A program made the translations under genes and the position numbers. A stretch of DNA of 51,762 nt, from the NCBI GenBank assembly GCA_013361335.1, contig JABFYH010000172.1, positions 1-51,762 of the forward strand, given 5' to 3'. Under the pieces are notes generated by a model. The model did not search any database. It was not told the DNA's origin and saw only the letters and a program-made list of their open reading frames with translations. Below are positions 3,936 to 43,757 of this stretch, piece after piece; within the stretch, counting starts at the first letter, position 1, and each line of letters starts with the position of its first letter. Source of the stretch: Gemmatimonadaceae bacterium. Its GTDB lineage: Bacteria > Gemmatimonadota > Gemmatimonadetes > Gemmatimonadales > Gemmatimonadaceae.

Positions 3936-3957
3936 CCCTGCGTACGACGCGAGCGTC

Positions 3958-5538
3958 TCAGCTCTTGCGTCCCGACGTCCAGCCGTCCCGGATCGCTCGC
4001 TGCTCCGCCGTGGCGGTGGGGAGCTCCTCGATGCGCCAGCGCTCGTCGCGCACGAGCCGCAACCCCGCCCGCGCGAGCAGCGCGTCGTAGTCCAGATCGG
4101 CCGTGCCGCCGACGTAGCGCTCGAACCAGGGATGCATGTCTTCGCCCGCGACCTCGGTTGCGGCGAGTTCGACGTCGCGCTCCGTGTAGCCGCGACCCTG
4201 GAGGTAATACGTGGCGTTCGGCGCGTTCCAGCTCCGCCGCTTGAGCGCGTTGAAGACGTCGTCGAGCGCGCGGCGGTTGCCACTCTTCGCGCGCAGGTAG
4301 AGATCGAGGTACAGCGCGCGCCCAGCGCCGCCGGTGTAGTAGCTGAGGAAGGTGTTGCTGCCGTTGGTGGGCTGCTGCTGTACGGCGCCGTCCCAGAACG
4401 GCGCGTGGAAGGACGCCATGCGCGGCGAGACCTCGGTGCGGCCCGGCGCCGTGAGGTTCGCGCGGATGATGCCCGCCATCGACCGGTAGAACTCCGCGAG
4501 GTCGGTCACGCCGGCCCGATGCAGCGCCGCCTGCCCGTAGTACTGGGTCCATCCCTCGGCGACCCAGAGGCTCGGCTGGTACTGCTCGCGGGTGTAGTCG
4601 AAGGGGCCAAGGGCGGCGGGACGAACGCGCTTGACGTTCCAGACGTGGAAGTACTCGTGGGCCGCGGTGCCGATGCCGGGCAGCACGGCGAGCGAGTCCA
4701 CCCAGGGACGCCGATCGATGATCTGGGTGGAGTACAGATGCTCCATGCCGTCGCCGCCCGGGTAGCCGATGTTGAACAGGAAGGTGTACTGGTCGAGCGG
4801 GGGCGGAGCGAAGACGCTGTTCTCGTAGCGCACGATGCGCTCGACGTCGCGCACGAAGCGCTCGCGCACGCCGCCGGGGGCCGCGCCGTTGTGGTGCACC
4901 ATGGTGCGGTACTTCTTCCCGTCGACGACGAAGGAATCCACCATGAACGACGGGGCGATCTCCGTGGGCGTGTCGATCAGCCGGTCGTAGTTCTCGAACC
5001 GATACTCGCGCTGCCCGGCGCGGCGGGTGTCGCCGTTCAGGATCTGCCAGCCGGCGGGCGGGGTGATGGCGAGCGTGACCGGGTTCTGCTTCCGTCCATC
5101 GACGTACATGAACAGCGATGCGCCGTTCCAGTTCGCGTGCGCGGTATCGAGCACGCTGAAGGTGCCGGAGAGGGCATTGTCGAATGAGCGATAGCGGATG
5201 CGCGCGCCCTTGCCGCCGGTGGTCACGACCCACCGAGAGCCGTCGGACTTGGTCCAGGCGAGCGGCTGGCCGGCGGGATCGGTGGCGCGGAACTCCTGGA
5301 TGTTCTTGGCGAAGTCCATCCTGGCGTAGCGTCCGGGCGACCAGACCGGCAACTGCAGGGCGAGCGTCCTGCCCCGCACGCCATCCACGTCCAGCTCGAC
5401 GTCGTAGAGGTGCGTGGCCGGATCGGGCATCGCGATGCGATACGCGATGTGAGCCGGCCGCGACGACTGGGCGACCGCCGCCGAGTACAGCGGAGCACCG
5501 AGCGCGGCGAAAGCGGTCAGGAGGCGGAAACGCGACAC
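3958..5538 (-). CDS. Secreted M61 family metallopeptidase
   Basis: 526 residues with a GTG start and an N-terminal signal peptide ending near the AVAQ residues. The HEYFHVWNVKR motif at 294-304 is the zinc HExxH of the M61 glycyl-aminopeptidase family. N-terminal beta-sandwich and C-terminal regions are present; I see no PDZ domain as found in longer M61 proteins. It would act in the periplasm or outside the cell as an aminopeptidase. It lies upstream of the histidine kinase in the same orientation. A strong inverted repeat sits in its leader (5566-5599). Confidence 0.92.
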   Translation of the reverse strand: MSRFRLLTAFAALGAPLYSAAVAQSSRPAHIAYRIAMPDPATHLYDVELDVDGVRGRTLALQLPVWSPGRYARMDFAKNIQEFRATDPAGQPLAWTKSDGSRWVVTTGGKGARIRYRSFDNALSGTFSVLDTAHANWNGASLFMYVDGRKQNPVTLAITPPAGWQILNGDTRRAGQREYRFENYDRLIDTPTEIAPSFMVDSFVVDGKKYRTMVHHNGAAPGGVRERFVRDVERIVRYENSVFAPPPLDQYTFLFNIGYPGGDGMEHLYSTQIIDRRPWVDSLAVLPGIGTAAHEYFHVWNVKRVRPAALGPFDYTREQYQPSLWVAEGWTQYYGQAALHRAGVTDLAEFYRSMAGIIRANLTAPGRTEVSPRMASFHAPFWDGAVQQQPTNGSNTFLSYYTGGAGRALYLDLYLRAKSGNRRALDDVFNALKRRSWNAPNATYYLQGRGYTERDVELAATEVAGEDMHPWFERYVGGTADLDYDALLARAGLRLVRDERWRIEELPTATAEQRAIRDGWTSGRKS

Positions 5539-5565
5539 GAGGGCGGAGGCAGAGGGAGAGTGACG

Positions 5566-5599
5566 AGCGCCCGGTCGGACTGGTGTCCGACCGGGCGCT
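5566..5599 (-). terminator. Perfect 15-bp hairpin between the PepSY and M61 genes
   Basis: Bases 5566-5580 are perfectly complementary to 5585-5599 around a TGGT loop. The hairpin lies after the PepSY stop (5651) and before the M61 GTG (5538). No clear T-tract follows on the minus strand, so it is either a GC-rich terminator of the PepSY gene or a structured leader of the M61 gene. Confidence 0.6.
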
Positions 5600-5650
5600 G
5601 GAAGCTCTGGCGGCGACGTGCGGGCCGCAAGCGGCCGGCACGTGCGCGGG

Positions 5651-6082
5651 TCACGGATTCTTCGCTGCCGAATCCCGCTTGGCGTCGAGGAGCTTCTTGT
5701 TCTCCTTGTGATGCAACACGGTGGACTTCACGCCGCCGTGCTGCTCCGCCTCGATGACCTCGCCGGTCATCGCGTCGACCTTGACCGTGCTCTCCCGCTT
5801 GCTCTTGTTCAGCACCTGCACCGAGTAGAGCAGCCGCCCCTTCTCGGTCCTGAGCTTCGCCGAGCTGACCTCGCCGTTGTCGGCGTGGGCGCGGGCGATG
5901 GCGTACGCGGAATCGCCGGAGACTTTCGCCGTGCTGGCGAGGCTCTGATTCACCTGGACCTTCACCTTGGCGGCGCTGCTGGTCGGGTTGACCTGGCCGT
6001 TGCTGGTGGCGGTGGTCGACTGGCCGGCGGCGGGAAGCGCGATCGCCGCCGCGAACGCCGTGGCGATGATGAACCTGTTCAT
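5651..6082 (-). CDS. Secreted PepSY-domain protein
   Basis: 143 residues: an N-terminal signal peptide (cleavage near PAAGQS), a short Ser/Thr/Asn-rich linker, then one PepSY domain (about 55-115) with the typical ARAHADNGEVSSAKLRTE and VKVDAMTGEVIEAEQ segments. PepSY domains are periplasmic and are thought to bind or inhibit peptidases, which fits the neighbouring M61 gene. Start chosen at 6082 because AGGAGG (6088-6093) lies just upstream; an in-frame extension to 6157 lacks such a site. Confidence 0.85.
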   Translation of the reverse strand: MNRFIIATAFAAAIALPAAGQSTTATSNGQVNPTSSAAKVKVQVNQSLASTAKVSGDSAYAIARAHADNGEVSSAKLRTEKGRLLYSVQVLNKSKRESTVKVDAMTGEVIEAEQHGGVKSTVLHHKENKKLLDAKRDSAAKNP

Positions 6083-6173
6083 GGTGACCTCCTGATATGG
6101 GGACGAGCCCGCAGCCCGAGTGGGCGAGCCGTCGGGGTCCGCTGTTGCAGGATGCATGCACCACTGGCAGGCA

Positions 6174-6192
6174 CGAGCGAAAAACCCGCTCG
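6174..6192 (-). terminator. Small hairpin after the enoyl-CoA hydratase gene
   Basis: CGAGCG (6174-6179) pairs with CGCTCG (6187-6192). On the minus strand the loop is GGTTTTT, and the hairpin begins 6 bases after the hydratase stop (6199-6201). The T-run is in the loop rather than the tail, so termination is uncertain. Confidence 0.35.
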
Positions 6193-6198
6193 CGTCGC

Positions 6199-6993
6199 TC
6201 AGCGCCCGTCGAACCGTGGGATCCGCTTCTCCCGGAACGCGGTCATCGCTTCAGCCACGTCGCGCGTGCCGAACGAGTACTTGATATTGGTGAGCTCGTC
6301 ACGGAGCGCGGCGTCCAGGGGGCGATCGAAGGTGGCGGCGAGCAGACGCTTCGTGAGGGCGTGGGCGATGGGCGCTCCACCGGCGAGCCGGCTGGCGTAC
6401 GACGCCACCGCCGCCGAGAGCTCGGCGTCGGGCACGACCAGCGTCGCGAGGCCGATCCGCTCCGCCTCGGTGGCGTCGACGTCGCGGCCGGTGAGCAGGA
6501 TGTCGTTCGCCCGCGCGAGGCCGACATGCCGCGGCAGGAACCAGCTCACCCCGGCGTCGGGGCTGAGGCCGCGTCGGACGTAGCCCGCGGTCATCTTCGC
6601 CGACGCCGCGACGATACGGAGATCACAGGCGAGGGCGAGCCCGAACCCTGCGCCAGCGGCGGCACCGTTCACGGCGGCGATCACCGGCTTCTCGCACGCG
6701 ACCACGCCGCGCACCCACAGGCCGACCCAGGCGTAGGGATCGAGGCGGTCGGCGCGCGTGGCCGTCGGCAGCTCGGGCGGGGCCGACAGATCGAGGCCGG
6801 CGCAGAAGGCGCGGCCAGCGCCCGTGAGCACGACGACGCGGACGGCGTCGTCGATCGCCGCATCGGCGAGGGCCGCAATGAGCGACGACGCGAGCGCACC
6901 GTTGACGGCGTTGAGCTTGTCGGCGCGGTCGAGAGTGATGGTGCGCACGCCGTCCGGCGTGGACTCGAGCCGGAGATGGGGGTATTCGGGCAT
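6199..6993 (-). CDS. Enoyl-CoA hydratase/isomerase family protein
   Basis: 264 residues, normal length for the crotonase fold. The AFCAGLDLS segment and the GAAAGAGFGLALACDLRI motif form the oxyanion hole. The downstream SPDAGVSWFLPRHVG segment has Asp rather than Glu at the position of one catalytic acid, as in PaaG/isomerase-like members. It would hydrate or isomerise an acyl-CoA in fatty-acid or aromatic breakdown; the exact substrate is unknown. It stands downstream of the vWA gene and is separated from it by a repeat-armed hairpin element (7030-7141). Confidence 0.88.
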   Translation of the reverse strand: MPEYPHLRLESTPDGVRTITLDRADKLNAVNGALASSLIAALADAAIDDAVRVVVLTGAGRAFCAGLDLSAPPELPTATRADRLDPYAWVGLWVRGVVACEKPVIAAVNGAAAGAGFGLALACDLRIVAASAKMTAGYVRRGLSPDAGVSWFLPRHVGLARANDILLTGRDVDATEAERIGLATLVVPDAELSAAVASYASRLAGGAPIAHALTKRLLAATFDRPLDAALRDELTNIKYSFGTRDVAEAMTAFREKRIPRFDGR

Positions 6994-7029
6994 GTCGAAT
7001 CATGGGATGACGACGAGGCGCTGTAAACC

Positions 7030-7141: not shown

Positions 7142-9167
7142 GATCTCGGTCCATCGTCGCGAATGGGCGGCTGAGGGTCGACGCGATCTCGGCGAGGCGG
7201 ATGAAATCGGTGCGGTACCCTTCGGGATCGTCGCCCTTCGCGCCACGCGCGAGCGCCACCACCTGCGGCCAGGTGAGGGAGCCGGCGTTGGGGGAGTTGC
7301 GCAGCAGCATGCCGAAGCCGGCGACCGCGCTGGCGAAGCGCATCGACTCGGAGGGAACGTGGCGCTCGTCGCCGCTCCAGCGCACCGGCTGGGTGAGCAG
7401 CACACTCCGCTCCCCGTCCGGCTGCTTGTAGCGCAGCGCCACGTGCAGGAGCTCATCGCCACGACCGCGCAGCATCGGCGCGCGCTGGTAGCGGAGCGGG
7501 GCGACCCCCGGGAGCGCGACGTCGAGCCGTTCGTCGGTCCGGACGATCTCGTACAACGCCGTCACGGCGTGGCCCGCCCCGATGTCGCCGGCGTCCTTCA
7601 CGTCGTTCGCGAAATCCTCGTCGCGCAACAGCCGGTCCTCGTAGCCGAGGAGGCGATACGCCTGCACGCGTGTCGGGTCGAACTCGACCTGCAGCTTCAC
7701 GTCCTTGGCCACGGTGAGCAGCGTCCCGCCCATCTCCTTGACGAGCATCTTGCTCGCCTCGAGCAGGTCGTCGATGTAGGCGTAGTTGCCGTTCCCCGCG
7801 CCCGCCAGCTTCTCCATCTTCTGATCCTTGTAGTTGCCCATGCCGAAGCCGAGGATCGTGAGGAAGGAGCCTTCGCGCCGCCTGTTCTCGATGAGCTGGA
7901 CGAGCTCCGCGTCGCTGGACTGCCCGACGTTGAAGTCACCGTCGGTGCAGAGGATGACGCGGTTGTTGCCGCCGCGCAGGAAGTTCTGACGGGCGACGTC
8001 GTAGGCGAGGCGGATGCCGGCGCCGCCCGCGGTGGAGCCGCCGGCCTGCAGGCCCTCGAGCGCGCCGAGGATGCGCTGCTTGTCGGCGCCCGAGGTGGAC
8101 GGCAGCACGAGACCCGCGCTCCCGGCGTACACGACGATGGCGACCCGATCCTCCTCGCGCAGCTCATTCACGAGGAGCGCGAGCGACTGCTTGACCAGAC
8201 CGAGGCGATTCGGTCCCTGCATCGAGCCCGACACGTCGATCAGGAAGACGAGATTGCTCGCCGGCGCGCGGCGCATGTCGACGTCGCGAGCGCGGAGCCC
8301 GATGCGCACGAGGTCGTGCCGGCCATTCCACGGCGCTGGCGCGACCTCCGTCGTGATGCGGATCGGGTCGCGGCCCTCGGGGGCGGGATCGGCGTACGGG
8401 AAGTAGTTGACCAGCTCCTCGATGCGCACCGCGTCGCGGGGCGGGAGCACGCCGTTGGTGAGGAAGCGGCGGACGTTGGCGTACGACGCGCGGTCGACGT
8501 CGACGGAGAAGGTCGAGAGCGGGGCGACGAGGGGCGACCGGAACGCATTCTCGTCGATGTGCTCGTACGCCTCGGTGTTGCCGCTGTCCGCATGGAGCAG
8601 GTACGGGCGGCGGCGCTCGCGCGGGTAGGCCGGCGTAGCCGAGGCGATCGCGCCGCCGGCCGTCATCGGCCGCTGGCGGGCCGCTTCCTTCCGGACGGGA
8701 GGCAGACCCGTCGGGCGGTCCGGTACGGGGTAGGGCCGTGCTTCCTGCTCGCGAATCGCGTGGTCGGGGACCGGGCCGGCGTCGGTGACGACAAGATCGC
8801 TCAGCTCCGGCATCGTGGGAGTGAGCTGCGCGTCGAGTCGCACCGTGTCCCCGCGCACAGCGAGCGGGAGGTCCTGGCGCCCGTAGCCGGCGCGCCGGAA
8901 GGCGACGACGACACGTTCCAGGTCCGCCTGGCGGGTGACGCGGAGCGCATAGCGTCCGGCGGCATCGGTGAGCGTGCTGCTGGCCCGGTCGACGACGGTG
9001 ACGCTGACCTGGCCGATAGGTCGGCCGCGCGGATCCGTGACGCGTCCGGTGACGACGGTGCTGCCGGCGCGACGCGCGTGCTCCGGAGCGCGCGCGGCGA
9101 CGACGGGAACGAGCAGGGTGGCGAGCAGCAATGCGGCGCGGCGCGGCCGCGGAAGAATGACGAACAT
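7131..9167 (-). CDS. Secreted von Willebrand factor A protein, YfbK-like
   Basis: About 678 residues. Signal peptide (1-25), a carboxypeptidase-regulatory-like beta-domain (about 30-110, TGRVTDPRGRPIGQVSV), a conserved block FSVDVDRASYANVRRFL before the vWA domain, and a vWA domain with the MIDAS motif DVSGSM at 311-316. The C-terminal YfbK-type region contains AYRLLGYEDRLL and DDIGAGH-like text. Such proteins bind a metal and a protein partner at the envelope; the partner is unknown. The start at 9167 gives a clean signal peptide; the open frame above it is not coding. The final codons and the TGA come from repeat element A. Confidence 0.88.
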   Translation of the reverse strand: MFVILPRPRRAALLLATLLVPVVAARAPEHARRAGSTVVTGRVTDPRGRPIGQVSVTVVDRASSTLTDAAGRYALRVTRQADLERVVVAFRRAGYGRQDLPLAVRGDTVRLDAQLTPTMPELSDLVVTDAGPVPDHAIREQEARPYPVPDRPTGLPPVRKEAARQRPMTAGGAIASATPAYPRERRRPYLLHADSGNTEAYEHIDENAFRSPLVAPLSTFSVDVDRASYANVRRFLTNGVLPPRDAVRIEELVNYFPYADPAPEGRDPIRITTEVAPAPWNGRHDLVRIGLRARDVDMRRAPASNLVFLIDVSGSMQGPNRLGLVKQSLALLVNELREEDRVAIVVYAGSAGLVLPSTSGADKQRILGALEGLQAGGSTAGGAGIRLAYDVARQNFLRGGNNRVILCTDGDFNVGQSSDAELVQLIENRRREGSFLTILGFGMGNYKDQKMEKLAGAGNGNYAYIDDLLEASKMLVKEMGGTLLTVAKDVKLQVEFDPTRVQAYRLLGYEDRLLRDEDFANDVKDAGDIGAGHAVTALYEIVRTDERLDVALPGVAPLRYQRAPMLRGRGDELLHVALRYKQPDGERSVLLTQPVRWSGDERHVPSESMRFASAVAGFGMLLRNSPNAGSLTWPQVVALARGAKGDDPEGYRTDFIRLAEIASTLSRPFATMDRDREP

Positions 9168-33877: not shown

Positions 33878-35281
33878 CTAGGCGTTCAGGCCTGTGCTCG
33901 GCACCGGCTGCACCGACTCCGGGACCAGGAAGGGCTCGGTCGCCTCGGCGCGCATGGCATCGCGGTCACCGCCCTCGACCACCACCTCACGCACCATCGC
34001 CACGCATGCCGCGGCGACGAGCATGCAGACCCCGCCCATCATGACGACGTACAGTGGCGCGTTGGGATTGTCCTGGCCGAACAGCGCGCGGATGAGGGGA
34101 CCGAAGCCGAGCGACGCGACGATCTCGGGGATGACGATGAAGAAGTTGAACACACCCATGTACACGCCCATCCGGTGTCCGGGGAGGGCGGTCGACAGGA
34201 TGGCGTACGGCATGGAGAGAATCGACGCCCACGCGATGCCAACGCCGACCATCGTCAGCAGCAGCACGTACTTGTCGTGGATGAGCCAGAGCGACAGCAA
34301 ACCGGCCGCGCCGCAGCAGAGGGCGACGGCGTGGGTCGCCTTGCGGCCGATCCGGGTGGCGAGCCTGGGCAGGAGGAAGGCGACCAGGAAGCAGGTGATC
34401 GAGTAGAAGGCGAAGGCGAAGCCGCCCCACTCGATGCCGCTCGTGTAGAGCGCGGACTGCGGGTCGGTGGCGCCGAACACGTGGCGCGCGGTGGCGGGCA
34501 CGAAGAAGAGCCACATGCAGAAGAGGCCGAGCCAGGTGAAGATCTGCACCACGGCGAGCTGCTTCATCGTCACCGGCATCTCGCGGATGGCCGAGCCGAT
34601 CTCCCGCACGACGTCGCCGACGCTGTTGCGGCTCTCCTTCCCGCGCTTCCACTCGTCGAGGTTCTCGGGGGGAAACTCGTCGGTCGTGAGCACGGTCCAG
34701 AGCACGCAGGCGAGGAAGACGGCGGCGCCGATCTGGAAGGAGTACTTCACCGTGAGCGGGATGCCGCTCGTCGTCGTGCCCGACACGCCAAGCTTGCTCA
34801 GCACGAGCGGCAGCGCGTTGGCGAGGCTGGCGCCAATGCCGATGAAGAAGGACTGCATGACGAAGCCCGCCGTCCGCTGGCTCACCACGAGCTTGTCGGC
34901 GACGAAGGCGCGAAAGGGCTCCATCGAGATGTTCACCGACGCGTCGAGGACCCAGAGCAGGCCGGCCGCCATCCACAGCGTGCCCGACGTGGGCATGAAG
35001 AAGAGGGCGATGGACGCGAGCACGGCGCCGACGAAGAAGTACGGGCGCCGGCGGCCGAAGCGGCCCCACGTCCGGTCGCTCATGGCGCCGATGATCGGCT
35101 GGATGAGCAGCCCGGTCAGGGGCGCGGCGAGCCAGAGCGCGGGCACCTGGTCCGGACGCGCGCCGAGCTTCTCGTACACGGCGGACATGTTGGCCAGCTG
35201 CAGTCCCCAGCCGAACTGGATGCCGAGGAAGCCGAAGCTCATGTTGAACATCTGCCAGAAGTTCAGGCGCGTGCGCTGCAT
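33878..35281 (-). CDS. MFS sugar transporter, SLC45/GPH-like (copy 1)
   Basis: About 467 residues, 12 predicted helices. The loop motif IGAMSDRTWGRFGRRRPYFFVG matches the SLC45/GPH cation-sugar symporter group, and a second RIGRKATHAV loop follows the sixth helix. The start at 35281 has GAGGAG a few bases upstream and is better than the in-frame ATG at 35317. It probably imports a disaccharide or glucoside. It is a clear paralogue of the permease at 42381-43757. It precedes the ABC operon in the same orientation. Confidence 0.87.
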   Translation of the reverse strand: MQRTRLNFWQMFNMSFGFLGIQFGWGLQLANMSAVYEKLGARPDQVPALWLAAPLTGLLIQPIIGAMSDRTWGRFGRRRPYFFVGAVLASIALFFMPTSGTLWMAAGLLWVLDASVNISMEPFRAFVADKLVVSQRTAGFVMQSFFIGIGASLANALPLVLSKLGVSGTTTSGIPLTVKYSFQIGAAVFLACVLWTVLTTDEFPPENLDEWKRGKESRNSVGDVVREIGSAIREMPVTMKQLAVVQIFTWLGLFCMWLFFVPATARHVFGATDPQSALYTSGIEWGGFAFAFYSITCFLVAFLLPRLATRIGRKATHAVALCCGAAGLLSLWLIHDKYVLLLTMVGVGIAWASILSMPYAILSTALPGHRMGVYMGVFNFFIVIPEIVASLGFGPLIRALFGQDNPNAPLYVVMMGGVCMLVAAACVAMVREVVVEGGDRDAMRAEATEPFLVPESVQPVPSTGLNA

Positions 35282-35355
35282 CCGGGACTCCTCTCGCGGG
35301 ACGGACGAACTTGGCATCGTGCGAGCCTGCCGTCAAAGGGACAGTCGGATCGAGC

Positions 35356-35420
35356 GGAGGCGGACGGATCACACGGATCGTTCGTCGTCGGACGACGCTC
35401 CGTTGCATCCGTTCCATTCC
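35356..35420. repeat. Repeat-armed hairpin element H (ACGGATNNN arms)
   Basis: A left arm (35356-35380) and right arm (35396-35420) of 25 bases each are inverted copies with a 9-base period around ACGGAT. The core is CGTCGTC/GACGACG (35383-35389 with 35391-35397). It sits between the NTF2-like stop and the MFS start. Confidence 0.6.
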
Positions 35421-35447
35421 CCATCTCCGAATTCCTTACGCCTGGCC

Positions 35448-35876
35448 TTATCGCGGCATCAGATAGTCCTGGGCAGCGATGATCCGCCAGGTGCCGCCGT
35501 CCCGCAGCCAGGTGTCGGTGAAGCGGTAGCGGTGGTCGAAAGGGCCGGTCTTCGAGCGGCCCTGCAGGCGGAGGATCCCCGTCACGATCGCCGTGTTGCC
35601 GTGATCGTGGACGGTCATCGCCGAGTTGGTCGCCCGCTGCACCGGATCGCCGTCGCGGATCGACGCGATGACCTGCTCGGCGTTCATCACGGTGCTGTCC
35701 TCGGTGTAGACGAAGCGCGGATCGAGCAGCCGGCGAAACATCGCCGTGTCACGGCGGACGACGCCGCGCGCCCAGCTGTCCTCCAGGGCGACGAGGGCGC
35801 GCGTGGTGGGACAGGTCTGGGCGGCGGCCGGGGCCGCGAGGGCGAGTGAAAGGACGAGCGTCTTCAGGCCAGGCAT
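35448..35876 (-). CDS. Secreted NTF2-like (DUF4440/SnoaL fold) protein
   Basis: 142 residues: a signal peptide (1-19, ending AAAQ), then a cone-shaped NTF2 fold with the pattern ALEDSWARGVVRRDTAMFRRLLDPRFVYTED and a C-terminal YRFTDTWLRDGGTWRIIAAQ. Such domains bind small ligands or act as enzymes; none of these is certain. It lies 25 bases downstream of the AhpD-like gene. Confidence 0.82.
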   Translation of the reverse strand: MPGLKTLVLSLALAAPAAAQTCPTTRALVALEDSWARGVVRRDTAMFRRLLDPRFVYTEDSTVMNAEQVIASIRDGDPVQRATNSAMTVHDHGNTAIVTGILRLQGRSKTGPFDHRYRFTDTWLRDGGTWRIIAAQDYLMPR

Positions 35877-35901
35877 GAATCATCTCCGCATCGAGGGCGG
35901 G

Positions 35902-36510
35902 CTAGGGCGACGGGGGTGACGGCGCGTAGCCGCGCGTCGCCAGCCGTTCGCCGGACATGTCGTACAGCTCCGGCGGCATGTCGGCCACCCCGGTCGCGTC
36001 GATCCAGGTGTTGTAGAAGTTGAACAGCGCGCACACGGTGATCGCGTCGTACAGGGCCTCCTCGGTCCATCCCGCGGCGACCGCCGTCCGGATGTCCTCG
36101 GGACCGATGGTGTTGGACGCGCGGTTCACCTTCTCGATGAAGGCGAACAGCGCGCGCTCCTTCTCCGGGATCGGCGCCGTGCGGAAGTCGTCCAGCACGG
36201 CGTCCACCAGCACGCGATCCTCGAGCAGTCTCGCCGCGACCGCGGCGTGCGAGCCGATTCAGAAGGGGCAGTCGTTGCGCCGCGAGACGAAGGCAGCAAT
36301 CAGCTCGCGCATCCCCGGCGAGAGGGGGGAGGGGCCGCGCATCACCCCCTGGGTGAACGCCGAGAGGTGGTCGGTCCGGTCGGGTTTGTAGGCGAAGAGG
36401 TGCATGATCTGCGGCACGGGGATGCCGGCCCCCTGCATCGCCTGGATGGGTCCTGCATAGGCACCCCTCGGCGGAGCCTGCTCCACCTCGCCGAGAAACA
36501 TCGGTCGCAT
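35902..36510 (-). CDS. AhpD-like protein, probable selenoprotein (TGA = Sec84)
   Basis: Read through the TGA at 36259-36261, this is one 202-residue protein of the carboxymuconolactone-decarboxylase/AhpD fold. The active-site block is NDCPF-Sec84-IGSH, so Cys81, Sec84 and His88 fall on the C-x2-C-x3-H layout of AhpD. Glu69 lies 12 residues before Cys81, the spacing of the AhpD proton-relay Glu. Without read-through, the frame would stop at residue 83 although the remaining 118 codons stay open in the same frame and look like the family's C-terminal half. A GGUC-loop hairpin follows at SECIS distance. AGGAG precedes ATG 36510, with a promoter at 36556-36585. It would be an alkylhydroperoxidase or thiol oxidoreductase. 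A nonsense mutation is the alternative. Confidence 0.8.
36232..36261 (-). promoter_or_regulatory. Candidate SECIS element with the UGA codon
   Basis: After the UGA (36261-36259), 17 bases lead to the apical loop. The stem CGCCGC/GCGGCG (36247-36242 with 36237-36232) closes a GGUC loop (36241-36238). The E. coli fdhF SECIS has its GGUC loop 18 bases after the UGA. It lies within the coding sequence, as bacterial SECIS elements do. Folding is by eye. Confidence 0.6.
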
Positions 36511-36555
36511 CGTCGATCTCCTGTGTCACGCCCAGTCGAGCGCTTGTCCGGCCCA

Positions 36556-36585
36556 ACTATACGATCGCGGCCGGCAGGGCGCCAA
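36556..36585 (-). promoter_or_regulatory. Sigma70-type promoter for the AhpD-like gene
   Basis: On the minus strand TTGGCG (36585-36580) is followed after 18 bases by TATAGT (36561-36556), giving a leader of about 40 bases before the ATG at 36510. Confidence 0.55.
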
Positions 36586-36641
36586 GGAGCCCCTGCTTGC
36601 TGGCACGCGGTCGGACGCACTACGATTGACGCCCCCACTCC

Positions 36642-38303
36642 ATGGTCGCCGCGATGCCTCTTCCCTCGATCCCGCCGCGCGCGTGCCGCGCGGTCTCCGG
36701 GCTCACCGCCGTGGTGCTGCTCGCCGGCTCGCTCGCGGCGCAGCCCCGCGCGAAACCCAGCGCGGCCGGCTGGACGCGCGGCGCAACCTGCTACGAGATC
36801 TTCATCCGCTCCTTCCGCGACAGCGACGGGGATGGCATCGGGGACCTGAACGGCCTCACCCGGTCGCTCGACTACATCAACGACGGCAACCCACGCAGCC
36901 GGACCGATCTCGGCGCCCGCTGCATCTGGCTGATGCCGGTCGCGGAGTCGCCGAGCTACCACGGCTACGACGTCTCCAACTACTACAAGGTCGAGCCGGA
37001 CTACGGCACCAACGCGGACTTCAAGCGGATGGTCGCCGCGGCACACCGGCGCGGCATCAAGGTGCTGGTGGACCTCGTGCTCAATCACGCGTCGAGCGAG
37101 CATCCGTACTTCAAGGAGGCGCTCCGCGACACGACGTCGCCGCATCGGCGGTGGTTCCGCTTCGCGCCGACGAAGCCGACCTCCAAGGGCCCCTGGGGAC
37201 AGGACGTGTGGTACAAGTCGCCAGTGCGCGACGAGTGGTACTACGCGGTGTTCTGGAGCGGGATGCCCGACCTCAACTACGAGACACCCGCCGTCCGCGC
37301 GGAGGCGAGCAAGGTCGCGCGCTTCTGGCTGACGGAGATGGGCGTGGACGGCTTCCGTCTGGACGCGGTGCCGTATCTGGTGGAGTCGGGCGATACGCTC
37401 GCCCACGCGCGCGCGACACACGACGTCCTGCGCCGCTTCGCCGCGGACGTGCGCCGCATCGCGCCGCACGCCTTCACGATCGGCGAGGTGTGGGACAGCA
37501 CGAGGACGATCCTCTCGTACTATCCGAACGAGCTCGACGCGCACTTCGCCTTCCCCGTCTCGGACGCGATCCTCGACGCGGCGCGGACCGGCACGCCGGG
37601 AAAGCTCCTTCCGGAGGTGCTCCGCTTCCAGCGCGCCCTCGCCTACGACCGCTGGTCGCCCTTCCTGCGCAACCACGATCAGACGCGCACCCTCACCGCG
37701 CTCGGCGGCGACACGGCGCGCGCCCGGCTCGCCGCCGAGATCCTCTTCACGTTGCCGGGTCTGCCGTTCGTGTATTACGGCGAGGAGATCGGCATGACCG
37801 GCGACAAGCCCGACGAGCGGCTGCGTACGCCGATGCAGTGGACGCCAGACGTCTCGGGCTTCACGAGCGGCAAGCCGTGGGAAGCGCTCCAGGCGGACAC
37901 GTCGACGGCGAACGTCGCCCGCGAGCGGGCCGACTCCGGGTCGCTGTTGAACGTGTATCGTCGGCTGATCCACCTGCGCGCCCGGAGCGCGGCCCTCGCC
38001 ACCGGGGAGCTCATTCCGCTCACGTCGAGCAACCAGAGCGTGCTCGCGTTCCTCCGGCGCGATCCGGCCGGCACGGTGCTCGTGGTGGCGAACCTCGGCG
38101 CCACGGCGCTGGCGGGGCTCACCCTCGCCTCGGGGCCCGGCGCGCTGCTGGCCGGTCGCTACGCGACGAAGGCGCTGTACGGTCCCCCCGTGATCGCGGC
38201 GCTGCGCGCCGGGCCTGACGGCGCGCTGGCCAGCGACGCCCCACTGTCACCGCTCGCGCCGATGCACACGTACATCCTGCAGCTGTCCCGCGCGACACGA
38301 TAA
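36642..38303 (+). CDS. Secreted GH13 alpha-amylase family glycosidase
   Basis: 553 residues with a signal peptide (about 1-32, ending LAAQP). The (beta/alpha)8 barrel shows YEIFIRSFRDSDGDGIGDLNG, the region I motif LVLNHASSEH, region II DGFRLDAV (nucleophile Asp), region III IGEVWD (acid Glu), region IV FLRNHDQTR (third Asp), and GLPFVYYGEEIGM. It belongs with alpha-glucosidase/oligo-1,6-glucosidase or amylase subfamilies. It is the divergent neighbour of the AhpD-like gene; ATG 36642 or 36654 could start it. Confidence 0.92.
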   Translation: MVAAMPLPSIPPRACRAVSGLTAVVLLAGSLAAQPRAKPSAAGWTRGATCYEIFIRSFRDSDGDGIGDLNGLTRSLDYINDGNPRSRTDLGARCIWLMPVAESPSYHGYDVSNYYKVEPDYGTNADFKRMVAAAHRRGIKVLVDLVLNHASSEHPYFKEALRDTTSPHRRWFRFAPTKPTSKGPWGQDVWYKSPVRDEWYYAVFWSGMPDLNYETPAVRAEASKVARFWLTEMGVDGFRLDAVPYLVESGDTLAHARATHDVLRRFAADVRRIAPHAFTIGEVWDSTRTILSYYPNELDAHFAFPVSDAILDAARTGTPGKLLPEVLRFQRALAYDRWSPFLRNHDQTRTLTALGGDTARARLAAEILFTLPGLPFVYYGEEIGMTGDKPDERLRTPMQWTPDVSGFTSGKPWEALQADTSTANVARERADSGSLLNVYRRLIHLRARSAALATGELIPLTSSNQSVLAFLRRDPAGTVLVVANLGATALAGLTLASGPGALLAGRYATKALYGPPVIAALRAGPDGALASDAPLSPLAPMHTYILQLSRATR

Positions 38304-38327
38304 ATCACCGATCAACCCAAGCATCGC

Positions 38328-40610
38328 ATGCGACTCGTCTCTGTCCGCCCTCTCGCCGTCGTCGCGCTGCTCGCGGGCGGCGCGCTCCCCGCACAGCAGC
38401 CCGCGCCGAAGTACGACCGCGCGGCATACGAGCACACGTCGGCCGACATTCCGATGCGCGACGGGCTCAAGCTGCACGTCGAGATCTACGCGCCGAAGAA
38501 TCAGACCGAGCCCCTCCCCTTCCTCTTCCAGCGCACGCCCTACGGCGTCGCCAACGCGGGGAACCGGCTGACCGCCGGATACGCGGAGCTCGCGGAGGAG
38601 GGCTACATCTTCGTCTTCCAGGACATCCGCGGCCGGTACAAGAGCGAAGGCACCTTCGTCATGCAGCGCCCGCCGAGACCGGTGGACTCGCCGGCGATCG
38701 CGATCGACGAGGAGACCGACACGAACGACTCGATCGACTGGATGCTGAAGCACATTCCGAACAACAACGGGCGCGTGGGGATGCTCGGCGTGAGCTACGA
38801 CGGCTGGACGGCGGCGATGGGCATGCTCGGCGCGCATCCCGCGCTGCGCGCCGTGAGCCCGCAGGCGTCGCCCGCCGACATGTGGATCGGCGACGACTTC
38901 CATCACAACGGCGCCTTCCGCCTGAGCTACGGCTTCGAGTACGCGTACCTGACCGAGGCGTCGAAGGAGAACTCCGACTTCGACTTCGACCGCTACGACA
39001 CCTACCAGTGGTATCTCGACGTCGGCCCGCTGTCGAACATCCAGTCCAAGGTGCTGAAGGGCAAGGTGCTTCCCACCTGGACCGATTTCGTGAATCACCC
39101 GAACTACGATGGCTTCTGGCAGCGCCAGGCGATGAAGCCGTATCTGACGCGCGTCACGGTGCCGACGCTGAACGTCGCCGGCTGGTGGGACCAAGAAGAC
39201 TTCTACGGGCCGATCACGATCTACCGCGAGCTCGAGAAGCACGATCAGGGGTCGCGCAACTTTCTCGTCGTCGGGCCCTGGCGGCATGGCGGATGGAGCG
39301 GCGGCTCGGGGCAGAAGCTCGGCAAGATCGATTTCGGGTCGCCGACAGGCGAGTACTATCGGAAGAACATCCAGGCGCCCTTCTTCGCCTACTACCTGAA
39401 GGACAAGGGCACGCTCGCGCAGCCGGAGGCGACGGTGTTCGAGTCGGGGAGCAACCAGTGGCGCACCTTCGACTCGTGGCCGCCCAAGAGCGCGGTCACC
39501 CGGTCGCTGTACTTCCACCGTGACGGAAAGCTCTCCTTCGACGCACCGACGTCCGCCGAGGGATCGCAGTTCGATTCGTACGTGAGCGACCCGGCGCACC
39601 CGGTGCCGTATCGGCCACGACCGATCGAGCCGACGTACTACCCGAAGGGCTCGGGGTGGTACACCTGGCTGCTCGAGGATCAGCGGTTCGTGGACGATCG
39701 GCCCGACGTGTTGTCGTGGGAGACGGAGCCGTTGACGGAGGACGTCGTGGTGGCCGGCGAGATCACGGCGAAGCTGTTCGCCAGCACCACCGGCCAGGAT
39801 GCGGATTGGGTGGTGAAGCTGATCGACGTCTACCCCGAGCACTACGAGCCCGACTTCAAGCTCGGCGGCTACCAGCTGATGGTGGCGAACGACGTCTTCC
39901 GTGGCCGCTTCTGGAAGTCACGCGAGCAGCCGACACCGCTCGTCCCGAACGCCGTGACGCCATTCACGGTCGACCTGCACACCCAGAGCTATCGGTTCCA
40001 GAAAGGCCACCGGATCATGGTGCAGGTGCAGAGCACCTGGTTCCCGATCATCGACCGCAACCCGCAGACCTGGGTGCCCAACATCTTCCGCGCCACCGAG
40101 AAGGACTTCAAGGCGCAGACGCATCGGGTGTGGCGCACGCCGGCGCAGGCGTCGCGGGTGGAGATCCAGACCGTGCCGACCGTGGAGTCGGTGAATGATC
40201 CGGTGCCGTCGCGCACCGTGGGCGCGCGCGGTGAGGGGCTCGATCTCAACGGATCCTGGGTCTCCGGGAGCGGCGCCGAACCGACGGTCGAGCACTTCAC
40301 CCTCGAGCTGCAGTGCAACCGTACGCCGGCCATGTGGATCATCGAGCAGGTCGGCGATACGGTGCGCTCGTTCATCAGTCCGGAGAGCTTCAGCCGAGGC
40401 GTCGCGAGTCCCCCAGGCTCGATTCCGATGCCGGTCACGGCCGTCGGCCGGATCTCCGGCCTCAACGTCGCGATGAGCGATCCTTCATCGCGCTACCGCC
40501 TGCACTATGACGTCTCGAGCGGCCATCTCCGCGGCACCTTGAACGGCCGCCCATTCTGGGCGGTCCGCCAGGAGGTCGTGCATCCGAAAGGGTGCAGGTA
40601 CCCGCGGTAA
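38328..40610 (+). CDS. Secreted CocE/NonD family hydrolase with C-terminal extension
   Basis: 760 residues. Signal peptide (1-22, ending LPAQQ). The S15/CocE alpha/beta-hydrolase domain has the nucleophile elbow GVSYDGW, a second catalytic block VAGWWDQEDFYGP (Asp) and VGPWRHGGW (His). A beta-jelly-roll follows (about 430-640). The last about 120 residues (after ESVNDPVPS) are not part of CocE and form a separate beta-rich region of unknown role. It would hydrolyse an ester or peptide outside the cytoplasm. It ends 7 bases from the convergent trehalase gene. Confidence 0.9.
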   Translation: MRLVSVRPLAVVALLAGGALPAQQPAPKYDRAAYEHTSADIPMRDGLKLHVEIYAPKNQTEPLPFLFQRTPYGVANAGNRLTAGYAELAEEGYIFVFQDIRGRYKSEGTFVMQRPPRPVDSPAIAIDEETDTNDSIDWMLKHIPNNNGRVGMLGVSYDGWTAAMGMLGAHPALRAVSPQASPADMWIGDDFHHNGAFRLSYGFEYAYLTEASKENSDFDFDRYDTYQWYLDVGPLSNIQSKVLKGKVLPTWTDFVNHPNYDGFWQRQAMKPYLTRVTVPTLNVAGWWDQEDFYGPITIYRELEKHDQGSRNFLVVGPWRHGGWSGGSGQKLGKIDFGSPTGEYYRKNIQAPFFAYYLKDKGTLAQPEATVFESGSNQWRTFDSWPPKSAVTRSLYFHRDGKLSFDAPTSAEGSQFDSYVSDPAHPVPYRPRPIEPTYYPKGSGWYTWLLEDQRFVDDRPDVLSWETEPLTEDVVVAGEITAKLFASTTGQDADWVVKLIDVYPEHYEPDFKLGGYQLMVANDVFRGRFWKSREQPTPLVPNAVTPFTVDLHTQSYRFQKGHRIMVQVQSTWFPIIDRNPQTWVPNIFRATEKDFKAQTHRVWRTPAQASRVEIQTVPTVESVNDPVPSRTVGARGEGLDLNGSWVSGSGAEPTVEHFTLELQCNRTPAMWIIEQVGDTVRSFISPESFSRGVASPPGSIPMPVTAVGRISGLNVAMSDPSSRYRLHYDVSSGHLRGTLNGRPFWAVRQEVVHPKGCRYPR

Positions 40611-40617
40611 TCCACAG

Positions 40618-42291
40618 CTACGGCCGGGCGGGCGCCGGCATCGTACGGGCGCGCTCCTGCGCCGCGAGGCCGAGCGCCACGCCGTTCGTCCACCCGAAGC
40701 CGTCCTGCGTGGGATACTCGCCGCCGCCGGCCCGCTTGCTCAGGTCGGTCACGTCGTACTTCTCCGTCATCTTGCCGGTGACGCGATAGGTACGCCGGTT
40801 GAGCGCGAGCCAGCGGTTGCGCGCGTCCTCGGCGACGTCGCCACGACCGTAGCGCGTGACGCCCTGGATGGCGAGCCACTGGAGTGGTGGCCAGCCGTTG
40901 GGCGCGTCCCACTGCTGCCCCGAGGCGATCTGGGTGGTGACGAACCCGCCCGGCTTGAGGAAGTCGCGCTGGAGCCGCGCCGCGACGGCACGCCCCTGCT
41001 CCGGTGAGGCGAGCCCGAAGTAGAGGGGCGCCGCCGCGGCCAGGGTGGGCCGGTCAGTCACGCGCTCACCGGTGCGCCACCGGACGTCGAAGAAGTAGCC
41101 CTCGCCCGGGTCGTAGGCGATGGCCATCAGCGCTCGGCGGCGCTCCTCTGCGGCGCGCAGGTACTGTGCGGCGACGGCACTGTCGCCGGTGCGCCCACGA
41201 ACGGCGCGCAGCGCCGCGATCGTGCGCTCGGCGTGATAGAGGAGCGCGTTGAGGTCCACCGGCACCAGGTCGACCGTCTCCAGGGTGCGCAGGTCCTTCG
41301 GGTCGCGCATCCAGCGGCTGGAGAAGTCCCAGCCGCTCTCCGCCGACGCGCGGATGTTCCGATAGAGCGCCGCGCGCTGCGCTTCGGCCACCGTCTGCGC
41401 GAGCTGGTAGTCCTCGCGATACGACTCCGGGCGCGGCTCCGGTCGGTCGTCCCAGTAGCGGTTGAGCAGGGTGCCGTCGCGCAGACGGACGACGCGCCGG
41501 TGCGCCTCGCCCGGTGCGAGCGCCGCGGCGCCCTCCATCCAGAACGCGTGCTCCTGCTCGAGCGCCTCGAGGTAGGGAAGCGCACGGGTCGTATCCGTCG
41601 CGCTGGCGTAGAGCCCGACCATCGCCGCGAAGTACGGGGGCTGGCTGCGGCTCAGGTAGTAGGTGCGGTTCGCGTTCGGGATGTGCCCGACGGTGGACAC
41701 GAGATGAGCGAAGTTGTCGAGCATCCCCTTCACCAGATCGGTGCGGCCGCTCTCCACGAGCCCCTGCATGGTGAAGTACGAATCCCAGTAGTAGACCTCG
41801 CGGAAGCGTCCACCGGGGACGACGTACGCCGTCGGCAGCGGAACGAGGGACGACCGCGGGTCGGCGACGTCGGCGGCGCGGGTCAGAGCGGGCCACAGCG
41901 CGCGGATGTGTTCTTCCATCGTCTGCGCCGTGTCGGTGCGCACGCCCTCACCCGCGGGGGCCGGCGCATCGAAGTGCTCGGCCACGAACGCCTTCAAGTC
42001 GACCGGTCCCCTCGCGTTGGCCGCGATGTAGCGCGCCACGATGTCTGCCGGTGCCGAGCGTGGCCGGGCATCCACGAGGGTCTTGGAGTCGGGATAGACG
42101 CGCGCGAGCTGGATGTCGTGGAAGAGCGGCCCCAGATCCCGCGCCGGATCGTACAACGAGTCGACCGCGCTCGCCACGACATGGGCCGGCACGCTCGCCG
42201 GCGGAGCAGGTGCGTGGCACCCCAACACCAGGACGAGGGCGGCGGCGAACCTGAACCGGAGACTGGTGGCGCGATGGGACCGTGCGGGCAT
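40618..42291 (-). CDS. treA: Periplasmic trehalase, lipoprotein form
   Basis: 557 residues. Lipoprotein signal peptide with lipobox LVLGC (about 20-24), then the GH37 (alpha/alpha)6 domain. It has both family signatures: PGGRFREVYYWDSYFTMQGL and QWDAPNGWPPLQ. It hydrolyses trehalose to two glucoses at the cell surface or in the periplasm. The ATG at 42291 gives a clean lipobox; longer frames are shadow. The upstream gap holds two GATGGGATTGGT units. The second SLC45-type permease lies directly upstream in the same orientation, suggesting uptake and breakdown of alpha-glucosides. Confidence 0.93.
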   Translation of the reverse strand: MPARSHRATSLRFRFAAALVLVLGCHAPAPPASVPAHVVASAVDSLYDPARDLGPLFHDIQLARVYPDSKTLVDARPRSAPADIVARYIAANARGPVDLKAFVAEHFDAPAPAGEGVRTDTAQTMEEHIRALWPALTRAADVADPRSSLVPLPTAYVVPGGRFREVYYWDSYFTMQGLVESGRTDLVKGMLDNFAHLVSTVGHIPNANRTYYLSRSQPPYFAAMVGLYASATDTTRALPYLEALEQEHAFWMEGAAALAPGEAHRRVVRLRDGTLLNRYWDDRPEPRPESYREDYQLAQTVAEAQRAALYRNIRASAESGWDFSSRWMRDPKDLRTLETVDLVPVDLNALLYHAERTIAALRAVRGRTGDSAVAAQYLRAAEERRRALMAIAYDPGEGYFFDVRWRTGERVTDRPTLAAAAPLYFGLASPEQGRAVAARLQRDFLKPGGFVTTQIASGQQWDAPNGWPPLQWLAIQGVTRYGRGDVAEDARNRWLALNRRTYRVTGKMTEKYDVTDLSKRAGGGEYPTQDGFGWTNGVALGLAAQERARTMPAPARP

Positions 42292-42300
42292 CGGGAAGGT

Positions 42301-42324
42301 GATGGGATTGGTGATGGGATTGGT
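42301..42324. repeat. Two direct 12-base repeats before the trehalase gene
   Basis: GATGGGATTGGT occurs twice in tandem (42301-42312, 42313-42324) immediately upstream of the trehalase start (minus strand). It could be a regulator site or a simple duplication. Confidence 0.5.
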
Positions 42325-42380
42325 ATGACGCAAGGGCCGGTTGGCGTGACGCCTGCGGCGGCGAGATGCGATGGACACGT

Positions 42381-43757
42381 CTAGCCCGCAAGCGCCGGGG
42401 CAAGGGCCGCATCTGGCGCCTCGCGGGCGACGGCGACTCGCACGAACAGCACCGCCACCGCCGCGCAGAGCATCAATGCCCCGGCGAGCCGGATCACGTT
42501 GTCCGGGCGACCGCCGAGCCACGCCTCGTAGAACAGCGGCAGCGTGAAGATCTGGATCATCATCGGAATGACGATGAACATGTTGAAGATGCCCATGTAC
42601 ACGCCGACCCGATGCTGCGGGATGCAGCCGGCGAGCATCACGTACGGATTCGACATGATGCTCGCCCAGGCGAGCCCGACTCCGAGCATCGGGATGAAGA
42701 GCAGCGTGCGATCGGAGATGAGCGGGATGCAGAGCATCCCCGCGCCGGCGAGCGAGAGGCAGATCGCATGGGTCAGTCGGCTGCCCACCCGCCTCGCGAC
42801 GGGCACCAGCGCGAATGCACCGACGAACGCCACGAAGTTGTAGAAGCCGCCGATCTGACCGTTCACGAGGCTCGCTTCACGGAAGCCCGGCGACGCGGCG
42901 TCATGGGTGTGAAAGAGGGTCGCGGCAAGGGAGAGCACGATGTACTGCCAGTAGCAGAACATGGCGTACCACTGGAAGAGCTTCATGACGGCGAGCTGCT
43001 TCATGGTCGTCGGCATCTGGCGCATCGCCTCCGCGACCTCGCGCAGCGAGGCCCCGAGGCCGCGCGGCATCGCCGCGATCCGGGTGCGTTCCTCCTCGCT
43101 CAGCTGGATCTCCTTCGTCGTCCGCACCGTCCAGAGGATGGAGGTGATGGAGAGCACCGATCCGATGACGAACGCGCACACGGTGATGAGCGGGATCCCC
43201 CGCCCGTTCACGAGGTCGCGATCGAGGCCCAGATACACGAGGATCGACGGCGTCAGGTACGAGAGCGTCTGGCCGAGCCCCGTGAAGGCGCTCTGCGTGC
43301 CGAAGCCGATCGAGTGCTGACGCTCGTCCAGCTTGTCGCTGACGAAGGCGCGATACGGCTCCATCGTCACGTTGTTCCCGGCATCGAGGATCCACAAAAG
43401 GCCCGCGGCCATCCAGAGCGAGGCGCTGAAGGGCATCCAGAGCAGGGCGAGGCTGCACAGGACGGCCCCGACGAGGAAGTACGGCGTGCGGCGGCCGCGG
43501 GGGCTCAGCGTGCGGTCGCTCATCGCGCCGATCAGCGGCTGCACGAGCAGGCCGGTCATCGGCCCCGCAAGCCACAGCAGCGGCAGGCTCGCCTCGTTCG
43601 CGCCGAGGTAACGGTAGATCGGGCTCATGTTGCTCTGCTGGAGCCCGAAGCTGTACTGAATGCCGAAGAACCCGACATTCATGTTGAGGATCTGGGCAAA
43701 GGAGAGCTGCGGACGCCGCTGCGTGAATGACGTGGATGTCGCCGGTATGGATGGCAT
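42381..43757 (-). CDS. MFS sugar transporter, SLC45/GPH-like (copy 2)
   Basis: 458 residues, 12 helices. The loops GPMTGLLVQPLIGAMSDRT and GRRTPYFLVGAVL, and the order of helices, parallel copy 1 (33878-35281) across the full length, so the two are paralogues. ATG 43757 has AGGTGAG ahead; a GTG at 43766 is an alternative. It probably imports trehalose or another glucoside for the trehalase downstream. Confidence 0.87.
   Translation of the reverse strand: MPSIPATSTSFTQRRPQLSFAQILNMNVGFFGIQYSFGLQQSNMSPIYRYLGANEASLPLLWLAGPMTGLLVQPLIGAMSDRTLSPRGRRTPYFLVGAVLCSLALLWMPFSASLWMAAGLLWILDAGNNVTMEPYRAFVSDKLDERQHSIGFGTQSAFTGLGQTLSYLTPSILVYLGLDRDLVNGRGIPLITVCAFVIGSVLSITSILWTVRTTKEIQLSEEERTRIAAMPRGLGASLREVAEAMRQMPTTMKQLAVMKLFQWYAMFCYWQYIVLSLAATLFHTHDAASPGFREASLVNGQIGGFYNFVAFVGAFALVPVARRVGSRLTHAICLSLAGAGMLCIPLISDRTLLFIPMLGVGLAWASIMSNPYVMLAGCIPQHRVGVYMGIFNMFIVIPMMIQIFTLPLFYEAWLGGRPDNVIRLAGALMLCAAVAVLFVRVAVAREAPDAALAPALAG

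What the first reader, a model, noticed from the sequence alone, without database searches (positions are those of the whole stretch)
35902..36510. Hidden selenoprotein: AhpD-like gene with UGA at the catalytic cysteine
Standard translation splits this locus into two fragments in the same frame. Joined through the TGA they make a full-length AhpD/carboxymuconolactone-decarboxylase protein. The TGA falls exactly where family members have the second Cys of C-x2-C-x3-H (Cys81, Sec84, His88), and Glu69 keeps AhpD's -12 spacing. The other 118 codons remain open and family-like. AhpD-like selenoproteins have been described in marine metagenomes, but I know of none annotated in this kind of organism, and automated annotation would call this a pseudogene or two ORFs.
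Basis: partly seen in the sequence, partly recalled or inferred. Interest (0 to 1): 0.85.

Follow-up and report, generated by a model that had tools for sequence, protein, structure and literature searches.

The report
AhpD-like selenoprotein in a gemmatimonad
A stretch that standard reading splits into two genes is, by all signs in the DNA, one redox enzyme of a known family that carries selenocysteine, encoded by an internal UGA, at its active site.

Summary
The finding holds. On the minus strand, window 36510-35902 encodes a 202-residue AhpD-like protein with an in-frame TGA at 36261-36259 (residue 84, CPFU-IGSH). Codon 84 is TGA in 81 and TGC in 9 of 90 homologous loci read (some are copies). 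Just after the TGA lies a 6-bp hairpin with a GGUC loop: present in 65 of 65 distinct sequences of the main Sec group, in 0 of 9 Cys homologues, with covarying pairs. The host genome, an 84%-complete MAG, has selA, selC, selD and a selB cut by a contig end. In two related genomes the gene directly precedes selA and selB, with tRNA-Sec within 5 kb. Pseudogene, read error or other recoding are very unlikely. The kind is already known: AhpD-like CxxU selenoproteins (TIGR01926/COG2128), reported from the Sargasso Sea in 2005 (PMC1088965) and listed in a 2026 review (PMC13188914); this protein passes the TIGR01926 cut-off. Added here: a gemmatimonad host (by kinship), a strongly conserved SECIS-like hairpin and linkage to the sel operon. 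The enzymatic role (peroxide reduction through Sec84 and Cys81) is inferred. Moderate interest.

The parts
35902..36510 (-). AhpD-like (peroxidase-related, TIGR01926) selenoprotein gene, 202 residues plus stop, here called cmdU
36259..36261 (-). In-frame TGA = Sec84
   Evidence: TGA in 81 of 90 loci, TGC in 9
36232..36247 (-). SECIS-like hairpin, 6 bp stem, GGUC apical loop at 36241-36238; bases +15 to +30 counted from the T of the TGA as 1
36518..36522 (-). Shine-Dalgarno-like AGGAG, 7 nt before the ATG
   Evidence: read directly
36268..36270 (-). Cys81 codon of CxxU
   Evidence: Cys in 90 of 90 loci
36304..36306 (-). Glu69 codon, proton-relay residue 12 before Cys81
   Evidence: invariant in the 25 rows aligned; spacing as in PMC3141380 (passages)
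36247..36249 (-). His88 codon, proton-relay residue 4 after Sec84
   Evidence: His in 89 of 90 loci, Ser in L100

Best explanation
The locus is one functional gene for an AhpD-like (carboxymuconolactone-decarboxylase superfamily, peroxidase-related) selenoprotein. SelB with Sec-tRNA(Sec) recognises the GGUC-loop hairpin just after UGA codon 84 and selenocysteine is inserted, giving the 202-residue protein (codon, hairpin and factors shown by sequence; insertion itself inferred). By analogy with AhpD, Sec84 and Cys81 in CxxU, helped by Glu69 and His88, reduce a hydroperoxide and form a selenenylsulfide that a cellular thiol system resets (inferred; substrate and reductant unknown).
For: Only TGA (81) or TGC (9) at the codon in 90 loci. 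The family match needs read-through: halves no Pfam hit, joined CMD 1.1e-10; TIGR01926 93.5 bits over its cut-off of 81.8. Hairpin with GGTC loop and 5-7 bp stem in 65 of 65 main-group TGA sequences, 0 of 9 Cys ones; the loop's Val codon is GTC in 65 of 65, against 106 of 214 Val codons elsewhere in these stretches; a synonymous-codon null gives the hairpin in 10.8% of draws. Covariation on 63 distinct rows: 99.2% of cells paired against 88.4% shuffled (0 of 500), both-side changes GC to UA in 11, CG to GU in 13, CG to GC in 1 row. selA 537 bits, selB 310 bits, tRNA-Sec 74 bits with anticodon tca, selD 371 bits. Of 51 phylum genomes with the TGA form 50 have selB and/or a tRNA-Sec match, of 7 Cys-only genomes 2 with strict or 4 with loose tRNA-Sec matches counted (Fisher p 2.7e-5; 0.0043; kinship ignored; counts). 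cmdU-selA-selB contiguous in two genomes. Model pLDDT 94.3, nearest solved folds 2prr, 6k40, 3c1l, 2pfx.
Against: No protein or RNA data. The window genome's selB is cut by its contig end, so its C-terminal part is unseen. G004 (77% complete) carries two TGA genes but no selB or tRNA-Sec match; of 13 genome contigs genomes 2 (G398, G408) lack both. The hairpin is mostly alanine codons in a GC-rich gene; folding energy is only weakly below the synonymous null (mean z -0.85). Two of the five covariation measures are less clear (18 and 6 of 500 shuffles reach them), relatedness alone can raise them, and the changes come from few lineages. L040 is frameshifted and L100 lacks His88. Phe83 stands where studied AhpDs have His or Tyr, a position not strictly conserved (PMC3141380, passages).
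Confidence: 0.96

Rival explanations
1. Pseudogene: an inactivating TGA in a former AhpD-like gene.
For: Standard reading shows two ORFs in one frame; one relative, L040, is frameshifted.
Against: Same codon TGA in 81 of 90 loci; dN below dS on both sides in 9 of 9 pairs; hairpin conserved.
Confidence: 0.01
2. Sequencing or assembly error changing TGC or TGT to TGA.
For: The window is a MAG contig; no reads could be seen.
Against: TGA in 13 of 13 close relatives from other assemblies.
Confidence: 0.005
3. UGA decoded by something other than Sec insertion (near-cognate read-through or a changed code).
For: None found; Cys would fit the site chemically.
Against: The TGA form goes with the Sec machinery (50 of 51 genomes) more than the Cys form does (2 or 4 of 7); the hairpin is in TGA forms only; TGA also ends some homologues.
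Confidence: 0.02
4. A selenoprotein, but not a peroxidase: an AhpD-fold adaptor, dehalogenase-type or other redox enzyme.
For: The fold search also lists the debrominase Bmp8 (6ohj E 0.0039, 6ohi E 0.011) and sestrin; M. tuberculosis AhpD acts as an adaptor for AhpC (PMC3141380, passages); no general neighbour hints at a substrate.
Against: AhpD's relay spacing is kept and the best matches are called peroxidase-related or AhpD.
Confidence: 0.3

Closest known systems
AhpD-like selenoprotein, CxxU (TIGR01926/COG2128): PMC1088965, PMC2398784, PMC13188914 (passages)
   Same: Family model, CxxU, stem-loop directly after the UGA with G in a small loop, Cys homologues
   Different: Host: the passages name no gemmatimonad; here also a link to the sel operon in two genomes
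NF041238 AhpD_rel_CFYUT and NF053654 GroundWater_YciW (seleno)proteins
   Same: AhpD-related (seleno)protein models; NF041238 matches this protein (44.9 bits), NF053654 matches the genome's paralogue L029 (60.9 bits)
   Different: Far below their cut-offs (175 and 310 bits), so not those families
AhpD of M. tuberculosis (1gu9) and PA0269 (2o4d)
   Same: Glu, Cys, Cys/Sec, His relay with spacing 12, 3, 4 (PMC3141380, passages)
   Different: Sec for the second Cys; Phe at the His132/Tyr50 position; fold closer to 2o4d than to 1gu9
Peroxidase-related structures 2prr, 2pfx, 3c1l, 6k40, 2oyo
   Same: Best sequence and fold matches
   Different: Not known here as selenoproteins; 23-29% identity in the fold alignments

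Membership tests
TIGR01926 peroxidase-related / AhpD-like (COG2128) | Score over the curated cut-off (81.8 bits) | tested here: met
   93.5 bits, residues 32-172
TIGR01926 peroxidase-related / AhpD-like (COG2128) | CxxC (or CxxU) with Glu and His of the relay | tested here: met
   E69, C81, U84, H88 invariant in 25 aligned rows; over 90 loci Cys 90, His 89; spacing as in PMC3141380
TIGR01926 peroxidase-related / AhpD-like (COG2128) | AhpD-like helical fold | tested here: met
   pLDDT 94.3 with Cys for Sec; 2prr TM 0.75-0.81
TIGR01926 peroxidase-related / AhpD-like (COG2128) | Hydroperoxidase activity | not testable with these tools
   needs protein
Bacterial selenoprotein | In-frame UGA aligned with Cys in homologues | tested here: met
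   81 TGA, 9 TGC of 90 loci
Bacterial selenoprotein | SECIS stem-loop directly after the UGA with G in a small loop | tested here: met
   criterion from PMC1088965 (passages)
Bacterial selenoprotein | selA, selB, selC, selD in the genome | tested here: met
   selB only as a fragment cut by a contig end
Bacterial selenoprotein | Sec in the protein | not testable with these tools
   needs mass spectrometry
NF041238 AhpD_rel_CFYUT | Score over the cut-off (175 bits) | tested here: not met
   44.9 bits

The most novel reading that the evidence does not exclude
In gemmatimonads this AhpD-like protein is a companion selenoprotein that travels with and helps to keep the Sec-decoding operon (cmdU-selA-selB with selC nearby), the part that fdhA or selD plays in proteobacteria; and its GGUC hairpin is so constrained that the protein follows the RNA: residues +5 and +9 after Sec switch together (Ala/Ala, Ser/Glu, Gly/Ser) because their codons pair.
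Probability: 0.25. Interest if true: 0.6.

Novelty: new member of a known kind. Interest (0 to 1): 0.42.

Why it matters
It shows a gene that stop-codon-based annotation would lose, in a phylum where the Sec machinery proves common: selB over the family cut-off in 281 of 395 sampled genomes. It supplies Sec and Cys forms with and without a conserved hairpin, useful for Sec-aware annotation, and, in two genomes, an AhpD-like selenoprotein gene next to a sel operon where proteobacteria have fdhA.

Tried and rejected
The plus strand of 35902-36510 gives nothing. One search lists G124 with a TGA; read directly, its codon 84 is TGC and the TGA lies at +115, so it was moved to the Cys set before the counts. 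G251 holds a Cys gene (L078) beside TGA genes and was counted with the TGA genomes. Conserved neighbourhood: ORFs of 31 regions (window and 30 loci, most with only 1.5-3 kb flanks) showed no general partner, only loose sharing of carbohydrate genes and, in two loci, the ORF later shown to be selA. Folding energy of +9 to +38 is only weakly below the synonymous null; loop identity and covariation carry the SECIS argument. Counting compensatory events on a tree is weak: 148 columns for 77 rows, many unresolved forks, stem codons not removed, and three loci with other hairpins (L109-L111) add to the counts. A scan of the window for TGA followed by a GGTC-loop hairpin gave 3 hits, of which only this gene is open for long on both sides (other loop sequences were not scanned). 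In one search, 8 of 73 distinct TGA rows were set aside: 5 of the L029 group (L023, L024, L027-L029) and L109-L111; their hairpins have other sequences.

Full report
Observation. The gene lies on the minus strand: ATG 36510, AGGAG 7 nt upstream, TGA at 36261-36259, stop at 35904-35902. Read through, it is a 202-residue protein with ...RRND-C81-P-F-U84-I-G-S-H88 and Glu69. The two conventional ORFs (83 and 103 aa) match no Pfam family at E 0.001; the joined protein matches CMD (1.1e-10) and TIGR01926 peroxidase-related above its cut-off (93.5 against 81.8 bits).

Where it comes from. The genome has 3.75 Mb in 230 contigs and 84% completeness.

Homologues. In genome contigs 13 loci encode close relatives, 13 of 13 with TGA at this codon; L041 and L042 are cut by contig ends and L040 shifts frame after about residue 147. 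Their record titles name gemmatimonads (7), Acidobacteria (3), Deltaproteobacteria (2) and Bacteroidetes (1). In 395 genomes of the phylum, 58 have a match at E 1e-20 or better. Codon 84, read in 90 loci, is TGA in 81 and TGC in 9; Cys at -3 in 90, His at +4 in 89 (Ser in L100). Some loci are one gene under two names; distinct downstream sequences are 82, of which 73 TGA and 9 TGC. Other in-frame TGAs inside the aligned stretches occur in 5 loci, at +112 to +115, where these genes end; aligned stretches were cut at TAA and TAG beforehand. Where one search also counts a TAG (6 matches), the ranges place it after residue 195; one was read directly (L022). dN is below dS before and after the TGA in 9 of 9 pairs.

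SECIS. In 65 of 65 distinct sequences of the main Sec group a 5-7 bp stem closes a GGTC loop at bases 21-24 from the TGA. None of the 9 Cys homologues has it (loops GGCC, CGCC, CGCG, AGTC; stems 0-3 bp). Synonymous codons drawn at the group's own usage give the hairpin in 10.8% of draws, so one sequence alone would prove little. On 63 distinct rows 99.2% of cells pair (0 of 500 shuffles reach this), the covariation score is 0.224 against 0.038 shuffled (0 of 500), while pairs with both-side changes (3) and further pair types (4) are reached by 18 and 6 of 500 shuffles. Sliding the partner by 1 to 3 columns lowers cells paired to 20-77% and the score to at most 0.07. RNAalifold finds five of the six pairs. 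Most switches alter amino acids at both ends (H-A-A-V-A-A, H-S-A-V-A-E, H-G-A-V-A-S), one is silent at both (L092) (read). Independent events are few. One Cys homologue, L079 of G367, sits in the Sec part of the tree with an AGTC loop and a 3 bp stem, like a decayed hairpin (long branch); that genome's selB match holds a TAA.

Machinery. The window's genome has tRNA-Sec (74.1 bits, anticodon tca), selD just before it (371 bits, itself with an in-frame TGA in RCAGUAAKL), selA (537 bits) and selB running off a contig end (310 bits). It has two further AhpD-like TGA genes (L026 on C51, L029 on C77). In the phylum sample selB is over the cut-off in 281 of 395 genomes and tRNA-Sec in 313 of 395 (matches near 1e-8 in selB-less genomes suggest some false ones). 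Of 51 genomes with the TGA form 45 have selB at E 1e-60 or better; of the 6 without, 5 have a tRNA-Sec match at 3.4e-13 or better; only G004 (77% complete) has neither. Of 7 Cys-only genomes (G124, G284, G291, G310, G351, G367, G382) selB is in 2 (G351, G367); tRNA-Sec is strong in G367 and weak (1.6e-8 and 3e-8) in G284 and G124. Fisher p: 0.0017 for selB alone, 2.7e-5 for selB or strong tRNA-Sec, 0.0043 if the weak matches count; kinship is ignored throughout. Of the 13 genome contigs genomes 11 have selB and/or tRNA-Sec, G398 and G408 neither; some of these genomes are also in the phylum sample.

Operon. In G087 (4 contigs, 100% complete) the TGA gene ends at 3731 of L112, selA runs 3782-5149 and selB 5152-7017, with tRNA-Sec at 8128-8224 on the other strand. 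In G251 the same order holds on the minus strand of L113: the TGA gene ends at 6557, selA 6492-5068, selB 5054-3141, tRNA-Sec at 1958-2053. selA scores 436.8 bits in each, selB 284.5 and 263.8 bits, all over cut-off. A 2006 survey describes selA-selB-selC operons with a neighbouring fdhA, or selD, in proteobacteria (PMC1794560, passages). In the window itself the neighbours are DUF4440, alpha-amylase, MFS transporter, S15 peptidase and trehalase genes, with no evident functional link.

Mechanism. Shown: conservation of codon, hairpin and machinery; a confident model (pLDDT 94.3 with Cys for Sec) nearest to 2prr, 6k40, 3c1l and 2pfx. From the literature: AhpD works by a relay of Glu, Cys, His (or Tyr), Cys and His (PMC3141380, passages), and 69-81-84-88 has the spacing of its Glu, Cys, Cys and His. 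Inferred: Sec84 attacks, Cys81 resolves, peroxide is the substrate. That the second Cys of AhpD is the attacking one is recalled, from no call.

What is known. AhpD-like CxxU selenoproteins: 27 Sargasso Sea sequences in 2005 (PMC1088965, passages), 299 and 70 sequences in two groups in 2008 (PMC2398784, passages); the 2026 review lists TIGR01926 CxxU (PMC13188914, passages). A find for 'gemmatimonad' gives 0 in the held texts of PMC13188914, PMC9312934 and PMC5029168. Searches with gemmatimonad names listed no paper on selenoproteins of the phylum (20 of 26 listed; 14 of 14; 10 of 3,328). PMC3281104 names Gemmatimonadetes among phyla with SELO homologues (passage), and PMC8938466 reports sel genes in about half of a MAG set that includes the phylum, without tying the two (passages). 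Subscription papers and annotation databases were not searched. So: new member of a known kind, in a host group not seen reported in those searches.

Noticed in passing
L044:8352-9395 (G000 C98): selD of the same genome carries its own in-frame TGA (RCAGUAAKL), a Sec-containing selenophosphate synthetase, directly upstream of tRNA-Sec.
   Followed up: partly
L026 and L029 (G000 C51 and C77): Two more AhpD-like genes with TGA at the same site; L029 has an unrelated hairpin (CCGCCTT-loop-AAGGCGG) and matches NF053654 YciW-related (seleno)protein below cut-off.
   Followed up: partly
L112 and L113: cmdU, selA and selB contiguous, tRNA-Sec about 1.1 kb beyond selB: a selenoprotein gene inside the Sec-decoding cluster.
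   Followed up: partly
L079 (G367): Cys form in the Sec part of the tree with a decayed-looking hairpin; that genome's selB match contains a TAA. Possible change from Sec back to Cys.
   Followed up: no
phylum sample of 395 genomes: Sec machinery is common, but none of the 283 genomes listed with selB is of genus g4, which includes three single-contig genomes without it (G028, G047, G081).
   Followed up: no
window 33878-42522: MFS transporter, alpha-amylase and trehalase genes around the gene; parts recur near the homologue in a few other loci.
   Followed up: partly
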